From positions 1 through 64,000 of IMG/VR virus record IMGVR_UViG_3300034682_000252: DNA of 64,000 nucleotides. One strand, written 5' to 3'. Position numbers and translations under genes: made by a program. The notes under the pieces were generated by a model, which searched no databases, was not told where the DNA came from, and saw nothing but the letters and a program-made list of their open reading frames with translations. Shown piece after piece: positions 1 to 60,570 of the stretch; within the stretch, counting starts at the first letter, position 1; each line of letters opens with the position of its first letter. Source of the stretch: a virus.

Positions 1-391
1 GAATGTCCGCGGCCACAAGTGCCATGCCGGCCGTGACGCGGCCTTTCGCATCGACGGTCACCTTGCCATAGGTGCCAGCAGTGACGCCGGAATTTGCCAG
101 GGTCAGGGCGATCGCGGCGTTGGCGGTACCGTCAAAGCTGGCGGAACCGGTGGCGTCGCCGGTGGCTGAAATGGTCCGGGCGGTGGCCAGCTTGGTGGCG
201 CTGACGGCGTTGGCGCCTGCCGGCAGAGCGGCGGCGGCCAGGTCATAAGCCTTTTTCACCGCGCCCGCGGTGGCGTAGGTGGTATCGCTGGCGAGGTTGA
301 CGGCGCCGCTGGCCGCCCAGTTGTTGACGTTTTCGAGCTTGAGATCCAGCAGCAGGAGCTGGCGAGCCGAGATTTGCGCTACAGCAGCCAT
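1..391 (-). CDS. Tail fibre protein, C-terminus cut by window edge
   Basis: The reading frame starts at an ATG at 391 and runs off the left edge, so at least 130 residues are seen. The N-terminal 35 residues are helical-looking (ISARQLLLLDLKLENVNNW). A stretch around residues 75-125 has the pattern SFDGTANAAIALTLANSG followed by GTYGKVTVDAKGRVTAG, which is the repeat typical of phage tail fibre proteins (Phage_fiber_2 type). It begins directly after the stop of the next gene upstream (392), at the end of the baseplate operon, where adsorption fibres are expected. Receptor-binding portion lies outside the window. Confidence 0.8.
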   Translation of the reverse strand, partial: MAAVAQISARQLLLLDLKLENVNNWAASGAVNLASDTTYATAGAVKKAYDLAAAALPAGANAVSATKLATARTISATGDATGSASFDGTANAAIALTLANSGVTAGTYGKVTVDAKGRVTAGMALVAADI

Positions 392-34649: not shown

Positions 34650-36155
34650 TTAGACGTCCTCCGCCACCAGCGCCTGCGCCCATCCTGCCAATGATTCTCG
34701 CTCAGCCACCATATCCGATGTAATGAGCATATTCGCCGGGATGTAGTCGGCCATCATGCTGAAACAGTAGGTATCCCACCGGTCGGGTGAGGGTAAGCCA
34801 AGTTTCTGCCGCATCGTCTCCTTGGGCATCATGCAGTTCTGACCCAGCTCGTTGAGCCTGCAGGGCATACGAGAGGCCTGGTCGAGGGTCTTTTCGTGCC
34901 CATCGAGGCGCATACGGCCGCTTCTCACCGCATCCCGGGCCATGATGTTGGCAAAGGCCCGTTTGTTGATGAAGCGCTTCTTATCCTCCTGGGAGAAGCA
35001 CGGTTGCCCCCACCGAATACGGATAACCTGGCGGCCGGCCTCTTCCAGGATCGTGGCTGTATCAGCCCCTACGCCGTCGCCATCCACAGCAAAGGTCACG
35101 TTGGGATACTGCTCGTTGGGGTACTCCGTGTTGAGCAGGCGGCCGTAATTCACCGGGTCGATAGTGCCGGCCCACTCCTTCACGCTCACTGGCACCACTC
35201 GCCGCTCGAATCGCTCCCCACTCACCCGCACCAGGTTGGCCACCGAGCTATCCCGGCCGTTCCCCACGTCCACCAGCACCAGCCAGCCCCAGCCTTTCGC
35301 CAGCTTGGGCTGGGCCCTGGTGGCCTTCTCGCAGTCATCCCGGGAGAGCAGGTATTCCGACGACGTGCGCGGGAACTCGCCCCGCACCTTGATCATGTAC
35401 TCGGGCGCGTCGCGGCTGCCGCCGTACTCGCGGATCTTGGACCGGATGAATGAGAGCTTTACCAGGGGGGACTGCTCAGAGCTCAACTTGATGGCCGTGT
35501 ACCCGTCCTTGTCACCGGGGTGGCGCTTCTTGAGCTTGTGGTGCGTATCGTAGAAGTAGCCGCTGGGGCGCGTTGGCTGGCTCAGGAGGAGGATCCGGTT
35601 GTCCTCCTCGGTCAGGGCACCGGTCATGACCCCGAACGCCTTGTCAGAGACGCCAGAGGCCTCGTCCACGATGTAGAACAGGTGCGCGGCGTGTTCGCCG
35701 GCGAGGGATTCCTCATTGCCGATACGGCAACCCTTGGGGGAGACGAACCAAACGCCCTTGCTGGACCGCTCGAAGAAGGTGGTTTCGGTCAGGACGAAGT
35801 ATTGCTCTACCCAGGGGTGACGCCGGCACAGCTCGCGATAGTTGATCTTGAGGTACTTCCAGACCACCGTCTGCACCTGGCTTATCTTGTTCGCCACCAC
35901 AATGACGCGAGCGCCCGGGAAGCAGAGCATGAAGATCAGGATCATGATGGATGTCATGTCAGACTTGCCGGTACCGTGACCAGAGGAGACGGAGGTTTTG
36001 GCCCCTGTCTCCTGGGCAGAGTCCAGGATCAGGGCCTGCTGCCAGGTCGGTTCCTTGCCGAACAGCTCCACGGCGGCCGTGGTCCAGTCATAGCGGTACC
36101 GCTTCACCAGGTCGAGGTAACGGGGGTCCTTGGTTATCGAGCGGATACGCCCCAT
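34650..36155 (-). CDS. pacB: Terminase large subunit (P1 PacB-like)
   Basis: 501 residues, close to P1 PacB. Walker A SSGHGTGKSDMTS near residue 60, Walker B LFYIVDEAS near residue 160, coupling motif with GALTEEDNRILLLSQP, and a C-terminal nuclease domain with AVDGDGVGADTA (catalytic Asp) and INKRAFANIMARD. Directly adjacent to the pacA gene (1-base overlap). It translocates and cuts DNA during headful packaging. Confidence 0.9.
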   Translation of the reverse strand: MGRIRSITKDPRYLDLVKRYRYDWTTAAVELFGKEPTWQQALILDSAQETGAKTSVSSGHGTGKSDMTSIMILIFMLCFPGARVIVVANKISQVQTVVWKYLKINYRELCRRHPWVEQYFVLTETTFFERSSKGVWFVSPKGCRIGNEESLAGEHAAHLFYIVDEASGVSDKAFGVMTGALTEEDNRILLLSQPTRPSGYFYDTHHKLKKRHPGDKDGYTAIKLSSEQSPLVKLSFIRSKIREYGGSRDAPEYMIKVRGEFPRTSSEYLLSRDDCEKATRAQPKLAKGWGWLVLVDVGNGRDSSVANLVRVSGERFERRVVPVSVKEWAGTIDPVNYGRLLNTEYPNEQYPNVTFAVDGDGVGADTATILEEAGRQVIRIRWGQPCFSQEDKKRFINKRAFANIMARDAVRSGRMRLDGHEKTLDQASRMPCRLNELGQNCMMPKETMRQKLGLPSPDRWDTYCFSMMADYIPANMLITSDMVAERESLAGWAQALVAEDV

Positions 36156-37573
36156 TACTCGGCCTCCCAGGATTCTTCATCCCAGTCGCCCGGTTGCGGG
36201 TCGTCATCGAGCGGAAGCGCATCGTCAGGGTGCCAACTGCCATCGTCGCCGGCGAGGATAAGCTCCCCCTCCTGGGCGTCTTTCTTAAAGGCCGCCTCTC
36301 CCAGCAGCTCGCCAGCCTGGTGCGCGGCCTCCTCGGCGATGATGCCCGAAATCTCCTCGTTGCGACCTGACAACCACTCCCCAGTCTGGACGCGCATCTT
36401 CTCCCGGTACGCCCTGGACTCTCGCTCCAACTCCTCTTCGGTGATGCCGCTACCCTGCTCGGCCCGGGGCTCCAGCCACGAGATTTCCTTGATCATTTCG
36501 GCATGGAGGGCATCCGGCAGATCGATACCCTCCCGGTTGAACAGGGTGGCCGTCTCGATGGCGGTCAGGCCTTCCTGGTTGCGGAGCTCCAGCAGCTCGG
36601 CCGTGCGGGCGATACGCTGGGCCAGGGAGAGGGGGTGGCGGCTCCACTCAGCCAGGGCCAGCTTGCGGCGCTCAAGCTCCAGCTTTTCACTGTCCATTGC
36701 GAGCTTGATGTAGGTGGCTTTCTGGCGGTGTATCGACTTCTCAAGTTCGGTGATGGGCTGGCTAGTCCCAAACTCTACTTGCATCAGCGCCTGCTCTTTG
36801 GGCATGGCGGCGCCGTTGTCATCGAGCCAGGGGCCACCCTTGCTGTAGTCCTTGCGGATCTTCTGCAGCGCCTCGCCCCGGGTTTTATACATGCCAGCCA
36901 GGCGGGCCCGGGCGAGTGTCAGCTCGTCGTCTGCATACTCATCCGAGGAAACCATCTCCAGCACCTCGGGATCAATCCCGAACTGGGAGGCATACCGCCC
37001 AAGCAGGACGTTACGGGCGCCGCCGCGCCGGTTTTTTGGGCGCGTCGGCGTTTGATCCTCAGAATTTCCCAGGTACTCGCCGACCACCACGCTCTCGCCT
37101 GCGCCCTCCCCCCTGGCCTGATCTGATCTACCCCCCTTTTTCGCTGCACCCCGCGTCGCGGCTGGCTTTGCGCTCCCTGCCGCTCGCTTTCGCTGCTGAT
37201 CAGGCGATGTGCTCCCGCTCGATGTAATAGGTTGATCAGCGGCCCTCCCACCACCTGATCTGATCACATGATCAGGCCCTCCCTTGGCATCCTTGGCCGC
37301 CTTCTCCTCGCGCTTCTCGGTGACCATCTTGCGCACTTCCCGGCGCACCACCTTACCCATTTTCAGGCCGGCGCCCTGGGCCCCCTCGGCGGTCGCCCTG
37401 GCCGCTGCCCCCTTGGCCTCCAGGGCAGCCGCGACCGCAGCCCCCATCGAGCGGCGGGCCGAATTTCTGTTCAAATCATTGGCAAGGGCGTACTCCACCA
37501 GACTCATAGAGTCGGCGAAGTGATCAACGTAGTTGTTGATATGGAATTGCCAGTCGAAAGTTGCCTTTGCCAA
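36155..37573 (-). CDS. pacA: Terminase small subunit (P1 PacA-like) with internal pac
   Basis: 472 residues. N-terminal helix-turn-helix YALANDLNRNSARR follows the PacA pattern (NLNPNTARR in P1). A charged linker holds PDHVIRSGG and SDQARGEG, encoded by GATC hexamers (pac, codons about 100-151). The middle third is helical with ELEKSIHRQKATYIKLAMDSEK, and the C-terminus is acidic. It would recognise pac DNA. Longer than P1 PacA (about 400). Confidence 0.82.
   Translation of the reverse strand: MAKATFDWQFHINNYVDHFADSMSLVEYALANDLNRNSARRSMGAAVAAALEAKGAAARATAEGAQGAGLKMGKVVRREVRKMVTEKREEKAAKDAKGGPDHVIRSGGGRAADQPITSSGSTSPDQQRKRAAGSAKPAATRGAAKKGGRSDQARGEGAGESVVVGEYLGNSEDQTPTRPKNRRGGARNVLLGRYASQFGIDPEVLEMVSSDEYADDELTLARARLAGMYKTRGEALQKIRKDYSKGGPWLDDNGAAMPKEQALMQVEFGTSQPITELEKSIHRQKATYIKLAMDSEKLELERRKLALAEWSRHPLSLAQRIARTAELLELRNQEGLTAIETATLFNREGIDLPDALHAEMIKEISWLEPRAEQGSGITEEELERESRAYREKMRVQTGEWLSGRNEEISGIIAEEAAHQAGELLGEAAFKKDAQEGELILAGDDGSWHPDDALPLDDDPQPGDWDEESWEAE
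37119..37274. other. pac-like packaging site, seven GATC hexamers
   Basis: Seven TGATC(A/T) hexamers lie in 156 bp: 37119, 37124, 37197, 37233, 37256, 37261 and 37269. P1 pac is about 162 bp inside pacA with seven TGATC(A/G) hexamers in two groups, cut only when Dam methylated. The size, number, and location in the linker after the N-terminal HTH agree. Three more hexamers lie nearby (37521, 37589, 37652). Confidence 0.75.
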
Positions 37574-58945: not shown

Positions 58946-58954
58946 TTATCCACA
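58946..58954. other. DnaA box
   Basis: Perfect consensus TTATCCACA at the left end of the origin. A second copy lies inside repA at 59333-59341. Confidence 0.8.
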
Positions 58955-59090
58955 GAAAACGGCCTAGCTAAAACCAATAAGATCCCTCTTTAAGATCCCT
59001 TCTTTAAAGATCCCAAAGATCCCCAGCACTCCAGAAAGCGCACAAACCCCAGGCCTGGCGCGGCCTAGCGGAGCGCCCCCATGACCTCGC

Positions 59091-59209
59091 GATGTAGTCA
59101 AAATTGGAGGTTGATGTGGTCAAAATTGGAGGAATAGCCCGCCTCGATGTAGTTGAAATTGGAATGGCATGTAGGCAAGATTGGAAGTCGATGTAGTTGG
59201 GATTGGAAG
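59091..59209. repeat. Five origin iterons
   Basis: 20-bp units GATGTAGTCAAAATTGGAGG at 59091, 59113, 59146, 59168 and 59190, most with 3-6 changes. Four intervals are 22, 33, 22 and 22 bases, so whole or half helical turns are kept. They would bind RepA. Confidence 0.85.
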
Positions 59210-60121: not shown

Positions 60122-60237
60122 AAAGCCTTTCAGGATGTGGCCCTAATTGGTAATTCTGTGAGCTATTGGGTGGCGACAAAAACCACCCAACAAGGGGGCC
60201 GGAATCAGGCTGGAAACAGAGGTGACAGCGAGGGCCT

Positions 60238-60336
60238 GATCATGAATTTCAGGCAAAAGAAAGCCCACCGCGAGGGTGGGCCAAGAGTTCTTTGATCATT
60301 TCGGCAGATGATCATTGATCAGGAGCCTAATGATCC
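60238..60336. repeat. Second TGATCA cluster
   Basis: Four TGATCA and one TGATCC in 99 bp. Similar in type to the pacA-internal cluster. Confidence 0.75.
60255..60282 (-). terminator. Minus-strand terminator downstream of repA
   Basis: GCCCACC/GGTGGGC stem; on the minus strand TTTCTTTT follows. No minus gene to its right, so it may end an antisense RNA or readthrough from the right. Confidence 0.6.
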
Positions 60337-60570
60337 TTTAGGCTATCGGTGTGTTCCAGGGAGTACCACCTCCCCGGGCACCAAATAACCGGTCAGCGCA
60401 CCTCTTACAAAGGCTGCCGACTGCCAAGCTATTATCGCATTCACCTGGCACATGCTAGGGGCTGGATTAAGTCCGCCTGCACGGTTGCACCATCGCGCAA
60501 CTGTGATAAGTGTACCCGACCATGATCCCCCCCTCAAGTGTTTGGTGAATCCAATGTACGGATTTTGCCC

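What the first reader, a model, noticed from the sequence alone, without database searches (positions are those of the whole stretch)
37119..37274. Dam-dependent pac-like site inside a diverged PacA gene
Seven GATC-containing hexamers sit in 156 bp in the linker after the PacA HTH. P1 pac has seven in about 162 bp at the matching spot. The hexamer arrangement differs (2, 1, 1, 3 instead of 4 and 3). Conservation of this logic in a diverged phage suggests methylation-gated packaging. Seen: positions. Known: P1 pac. Inferred: function.
Basis: partly seen in the sequence, partly recalled or inferred. Interest (0 to 1): 0.85.

Follow-up and report, generated by a model that had tools for sequence, protein, structure and literature searches.

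The report
P1-type packaging site in phage-plasmid
Inside a phage gene for the protein that starts DNA packaging lies a two-part array of methylation sites, matching the start-of-packaging site of phage P1 in position and layout; most relatives of this gene keep the same layout for DNA-level reasons, so it is very probably this phage's packaging start, though this phage seems to borrow the methylating enzyme from its host.

Summary
In detail: seven GATC hexamers lie at 37119-37274, in the predicted disordered linker of a PacA-like gene beside a PacB 55% identical to P1's. Density alone is weak (random placement of the record's 549 GATCs gives such a cluster somewhere in 17% of trials), but at this pre-specified place it is significant with protein and codon usage fixed (P=0.0007). 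Across 20 lineages the linker excess is P=2e-18; the rest of the gene gives P=0.999. Most relatives share a two-part layout (left array, core without GATC, right array); in P1 the core holds the IHF and cleavage sites. PacB relatives with a different small subunit show no such array. Differences from canonical P1 pac: three of seven hexamers are AGATCA, not TGATCA/G; no IHF consensus in the core; no Dam gene found in the record, while 40 of 41 Aeromonadaceae genomes sampled encode Dam. Best reading: a P1-type pac site cut by PacA/PacB and gated by host Dam. Cleavage and gating are inferred by homology, not shown.

The parts
36155..37573 (-). pacA-like gene (small terminase / packase A), 472 aa; HTH residues ~8-67, disordered linker residues 98-194, helical C-terminal part
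   Evidence: PHROG terminase hits; HTH and linker in an AlphaFold model, mean pLDDT 69; ~23% identity to P1 PacA, 48-53% to Aeromonas plasmid relatives
34650..36155 (-). pacB (large terminase), 501 aa
   Evidence: 55% identical to P1 PacB, 94% (397 aa) to A. hydrophila pASP-135
37197..37274 (-). left (HEX4-like) array: 5 GATC hexamers, on the pacA strand TGATCA, TGATCA, AGATCA, TGATCA, TGATCA
   Evidence: layout shared with relatives
37130..37196 (-). core without GATC (73 bp start to start), the place where P1 is cut; no IHF consensus here
   Evidence: 73 bp also in pASP-135; P1 cleavage and IHF sites lie in the matching core; position of the cut here is inferred
37119..37129 (-). right (HEX3-like) array, first two sites, AGATCAGATCA
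   Evidence: first site aligns with the first right-array site of the A. hydrophila and A. salmonicida relatives
   Evidence: lies in the ..DQ..PTRP stretch where relatives have their last right-array TGATCA
36992..37282 (-). DNA encoding the predicted disordered PacA linker that contains the whole array
   Evidence: pLDDT below 50 for residues 98-194; coordinates

Best explanation
This is a P1-type pac site: the place where PacA/PacB make the first cut for headful packaging, embedded in the pacA gene. PacA (HTH) would bind GATC hexamers in a left and a right array on either side of a ~73-bp core, and PacB would cut in the core. Adenine methylation of the GATCs would set whether the site is used, so that few sites per concatemer are cut. 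With no Dam gene found in the record, methylation would come from the host's Dam. Shown here: the array, its non-chance nature, its conservation, its absence from relatives with another small subunit, no Dam found in the record. Inferred: binding, cut position, methylation dependence.
For: Linker GATC excess with protein and codon usage fixed: window P=0.0007; 20 lineages combined P=2e-18; rest of the same genes P=0.999. Most P1-type PacA genes (P1, Serratia, Pantoea, Xenorhabdus, Rosenbergiella, Vibrio, Leclercia, Aeromonas) have left array, 71-155 bp core, right array at this spot. Annotated P1 IHF and cleavage sites lie in that core. Between the A. hydrophila and A. salmonicida relatives (74% nt identity) 9 of 10 linker GATCs are shared but 0 of 6 elsewhere in the gene; left-array hexamers 30/30 nt identical, spacers 35/46. 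The window's sites use all three reading frames, so the pattern is not set by the protein. PacB relatives with a different small subunit show at most 4 scattered GATCs per 162 bp and no bipartite array. Hosts with arrays all encode Dam; 40 of 41 Aeromonadaceae genomes do. In P1, recoding the hexamers synonymously cut phage titre ~9-fold (PMC10028697), and P1 needs Dam methylation at pac (PMC12707154).
Against: Record-wide, a 7-GATC cluster somewhere is not rare (17% of random placements). Three of seven hexamers differ from TGATCA/G. No IHF consensus in the core. Spacing in the window's left array (8, 5, 23, 36) is less regular than in relatives, and two right-array GATCs are only 5 bp apart, so not all sites need be bound. 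D6, L080 and Photobacterium L011 have weak or irregular arrays. Left/right boundaries in relatives were assigned by eye. No end-mapping or binding data exist.
Confidence: 0.85

Rival explanations
1. By-product of coding: a disordered, DQ/DH-rich linker in a GATC-rich genome gives many GATCs without any DNA function.
For: The record has 549 GATCs, 1.46 times the dinucleotide expectation, and random placement gives a 7-site cluster somewhere in 17% of trials.
Against: Excess remains with the protein fixed (P=0.0007 here, 2e-18 over 20 lineages) and is absent in the rest of the gene; all three frames are used; in relatives hexamers are conserved beyond spacers and beyond other GATCs of the gene.
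Confidence: 0.04
2. A Dam/SeqA-type regulatory element (hemimethylation timing, control of pacA or parM transcription, or a replication site) rather than the packaging cut site.
For: GATC clusters also mark Dam-controlled origins; this record has a P1-oriR-like GATC cluster at 58981-59018. TGATCA also occurs just upstream of pacA (37590, 37653).
Against: The cluster is inside the gene in a bipartite layout tied to PacA type and centred on the P1 cut site, not at a promoter; no iteron array was found there.
Confidence: 0.06
3. A relic: the array is homologous to pac but packaging now starts elsewhere, for example at the TGATCA cluster 60237-60335.
For: IHF consensus missing, irregular left-array spacing and divergent hexamers in the window; a second TGATCA cluster exists.
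Against: Window linker still exceeds the codon null (P=0.0007); 3-4 of 8 linker GATCs are shared with relatives at 56-63% nt identity against 0 of 5 elsewhere in the gene; pacA and pacB are intact open frames.
Confidence: 0.05

Closest known systems
Phage P1 pac site (HEX4 - IHF/cleavage - HEX3, in pacA of AF234172)
   Same: In the linker after the PacA HTH, upstream of pacB; two GATC-hexamer arrays flanking a core; seven hexamers in ~160 bp
Putative phage-plasmid pASP-135 of Aeromonas hydrophila AHNIH1 (NZ_CP016381; listed as a putative phage-plasmid in PMC9600943) and A. salmonicida AS3 plasmid (NZ_CP110646)
   Same: PacB 94% and 87% identical, same neighbourhood (ParM divergent to pacA), bipartite array; core also 73 bp in pASP-135
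   Different: More regular left arrays (mostly 18-bp steps, mostly TGATCA); pASP-135 has a weak D12-class methyltransferase hit; the arrays are not annotated in these records
Phage D6 pacA region (MF356679)
   Same: Same pacA-pacB order, PacB 56% identical, C1-like repressor gene next to pacB
   Different: Only a weak GATC group (5 in the linker, P=0.08), and it encodes its own D12-class methylase

Membership tests
Canonical P1 pac site | Lies inside pacA, after the HTH, upstream of pacB | tested here: met
Canonical P1 pac site | About seven Dam-site hexamers in ~161 bp | tested here: met
   7 in 156 bp
Canonical P1 pac site | Every hexamer is TGATCA or TGATCG | tested here: not met
   4 TGATCA, 3 AGATCA on the pacA strand; so it is called a variant, not a canonical P1 pac
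Canonical P1 pac site | Two hexamer groups flanking a core | tested here: met
   5 + 73 bp + 2(3); P1 4 + 96 + 3
Canonical P1 pac site | IHF site in the core | tested here: not met
   no match with 2 or fewer mismatches in the core; 6 of 19 family cores have a match with 1 or fewer, against 0.54 expected
Canonical P1 pac site | Cut in the core by PacA + PacB | not testable with these tools
   needs end mapping or a cleavage assay
Canonical P1 pac site | Use depends on Dam methylation | not testable with these tools
   Dam present in the likely host family; no D12, Dam-family or N6_N4 methylase found in the record
P1-type PacA/PacB packase | PacB homologous to P1 PacB over full length | tested here: met
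   55% identity over 492 aligned columns
P1-type PacA/PacB packase | PacA with N-terminal HTH and linker, directly before pacB | tested here: met
   alignment and model; overall identity to P1 PacA only ~23%

The most novel reading that the evidence does not exclude
In the Aeromonas branch of P1-type phage-plasmids, pac has become an IHF-independent, host-Dam-gated site whose recognition unit is essentially the methylated GATC itself, with flanking bases varying by lineage along with the PacA HTH (CGATCA in L013, YGATCC in L010, YGATCG in Vibrio L121), so that related phages tell their own pac sites apart.
Probability: 0.25. Interest if true: 0.65.

Novelty: new variant of a known kind. Interest (0 to 1): 0.5.

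Why it matters
The P1 pac site is the textbook case of methylation-gated packaging. The comparison indicates that the bipartite GATC layout is a selected trait of a wider phage-plasmid group in Enterobacterales, Aeromonadales and Vibrionales, while the IHF site and the phage-borne Dam seem dispensable. It gives testable pac coordinates for a phage-plasmid branch whose close relative pASP-135 carries blaKPC-2, and a sequence rule (GATC excess beyond codon expectation in the PacA linker) for proposing pac sites in unstudied members.

Tried and rejected
tblastn of window PacA against phages: no match; PacA single-protein scan of viral contigs: none. Fold search of the PacA model: no significant match in PDB or viral library; HK97 small terminase ranks first in PDB at E=1.1 only. 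Profile search of PDB sequences: nothing. IHF in the window: the only 1-mismatch match, GATCAACCTATTA, overlaps the hexamer at 37234 and was not counted. Density as sole evidence was rejected as too weak (17%). Paper searches turned up no description of pac arrays outside P1; only open-licence papers were searched.

Full report
Observation. The seven GATC hexamers are at the stated coordinates. On the pacA strand they read TGATCA (37270), TGATCA (37262), AGATCA (37257), TGATCA (37234), TGATCA (37198), AGATCA (37125), AGATCA (37120). The window is part of a 91,016-bp virus record, 61% GC, with 549 GATCs. The cluster is the densest of the record, but with that many GATCs a cluster of seven in 162 bp arises somewhere in 17% of random placements. 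The useful test is at the pre-specified place. The 420-bp length was chosen once for all genes so as to span the linker.

The gene. The ORF 37573..36155 (-) overlaps by one base with a PacB-like terminase that is 55% identical to P1 PacB and 94% (over 397 aa) to that of A. hydrophila pASP-135. PHROGs calls it terminase. An AlphaFold model (14 sequences, mean pLDDT 69) gives a confident N-terminal HTH and a disordered stretch at residues 98-194 (pLDDT ~30), that is 36992-37282, which holds the whole array. Around it are a ParM-like gene on the other strand, a weak relative of the D6 C1-like repressor beyond pacB, and tail sheath and baseplate genes.

Family comparison. Relatives were fetched through PacA and PacB from plasmids, viral contigs, phages and genomes. 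Most P1-type PacA genes carry the same bipartite pattern after the HTH: P1 4+96 bp+3; P1-like L015 4+71+3; Cronobacter JK004 4+96+5; Serratia 5+83+3; Enterobacteriaceae B14 5+80+3; Pantoea 7+126+2; Rosenbergiella 6+155+1; Xenorhabdus 3+111..155+2-3; Vibrio owensii 5+75+3; Leclercia 6+93+2; A. salmonicida 5+85+3; pASP-135 6+73+3; A. hydrophila YURI17 7+98+4; the window 5+73+2, or 3 with 37054. Array boundaries were assigned by eye. Photobacterium L011, L080 and D6 have weak or irregular arrays. PacB relatives with another type of small subunit (Shewanella, several Vibrio, Tolumonas, Psychrobacter) show at most 4 scattered GATCs per 162 bp and no bipartite array. On a PacB tree the array label needs three changes (one row without the label, L101, is truncated at a contig end).

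Selection on DNA. With protein and codon usage fixed, Fisher's combination over 20 lineages gives P=2e-18 for the linker and 0.999 for the rest of the same genes. Lineages are related by descent, so the combined value overstates independence; the contrast with the rest of the gene is the stronger point. Between pASP-135 and the A. salmonicida relative, 9 of 10 linker GATCs are shared but 0 of 6 elsewhere in the gene; left-array hexamers are 30/30 identical, spacers 35/46. The window shares 3-4 of 8 with these relatives and 0 of 5 elsewhere. In the window all three reading frames are used. Flanks vary by lineage, but TGATCA is the commonest hexamer (83 of 146).

Core and IHF. In P1 the annotated IHF site (90784-90796) and cleavage positions (90804-90813) lie in the core. 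Six of 19 family cores have an IHF consensus with at most one mismatch on the same strand as P1, against 0.54 expected (P=5e-6), starting 27-51 bp after the left array. The window and its Aeromonas/Leclercia neighbours (L006, L007, L008, L012) have none.

Methylation. No D12-class, Dam-family or N6_N4 methylase was found in the record. P1, D6, JK004 and other P1-like records have a strong D12 match; five array-bearing relatives (A. salmonicida, Leclercia, YURI17, two viral contigs) have none. All array-bearing genomes searched encode Dam, as do 40 of 41 Aeromonadaceae genomes. The window's host is not known; Aeromonas is inferred from the nearest relatives.

Known biology used. P1 pac: 161 bp, seven TGATCA/G hexamers, IHF and cleavage site between HEX4 and HEX3; synonymous recoding of the hexamers lowered P1 titre about 9-fold (PMC10028697). 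P1 needs Dam methylation at pac, and its own methylase in Dam- hosts (PMC12707154).

Verdict. A P1-type pac site in a diverged PacA gene, a variant without an IHF consensus and without strict hexamers, probably served by host Dam. What is shown is conservation, layout and selection on DNA; cleavage and gating are inferred.

Noticed in passing
window 58947-59207: P1-oriR-like origin: DnaA box TTATCCACA, four AAGATCCC Dam-site repeats (GATC 58981, 58994, 59009, 59018), then iterons ATGTAGT..ATTGGA before/at a weak Rep3-like initiator gene; same order as annotated in P1 oriR. So the record has counterparts of two P1 Dam-site elements but no Dam gene was found.
   Followed up: partly
window 60237-60337: Second TGATCA cluster (four TGATCA plus TGATCC in about 100 bp) after the rep gene, partly within a possible hairpin AGCCTAA..TTTAGGCT; role unknown.
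   Followed up: no
window 37590 and 37653: Two more TGATCA sites in the pacA-parM intergenic region, outside the array.
   Followed up: no
L010 and L013, pacA linker: Array units are lineage-specific and longer than a hexamer: AAAAGCGATCC in A. hydrophila YURI17, AAAAGCGATCA in L013, hinting at lineage-specific PacA recognition.
   Followed up: partly
record 64210-71067 (L098:210-7067): 2285-aa protein with SNF2/helicase domains and, by eye, a methyltransferase-like N-terminal part, perhaps DarB-like; contains a 4-GATC cluster at 65914-65959.
   Followed up: no
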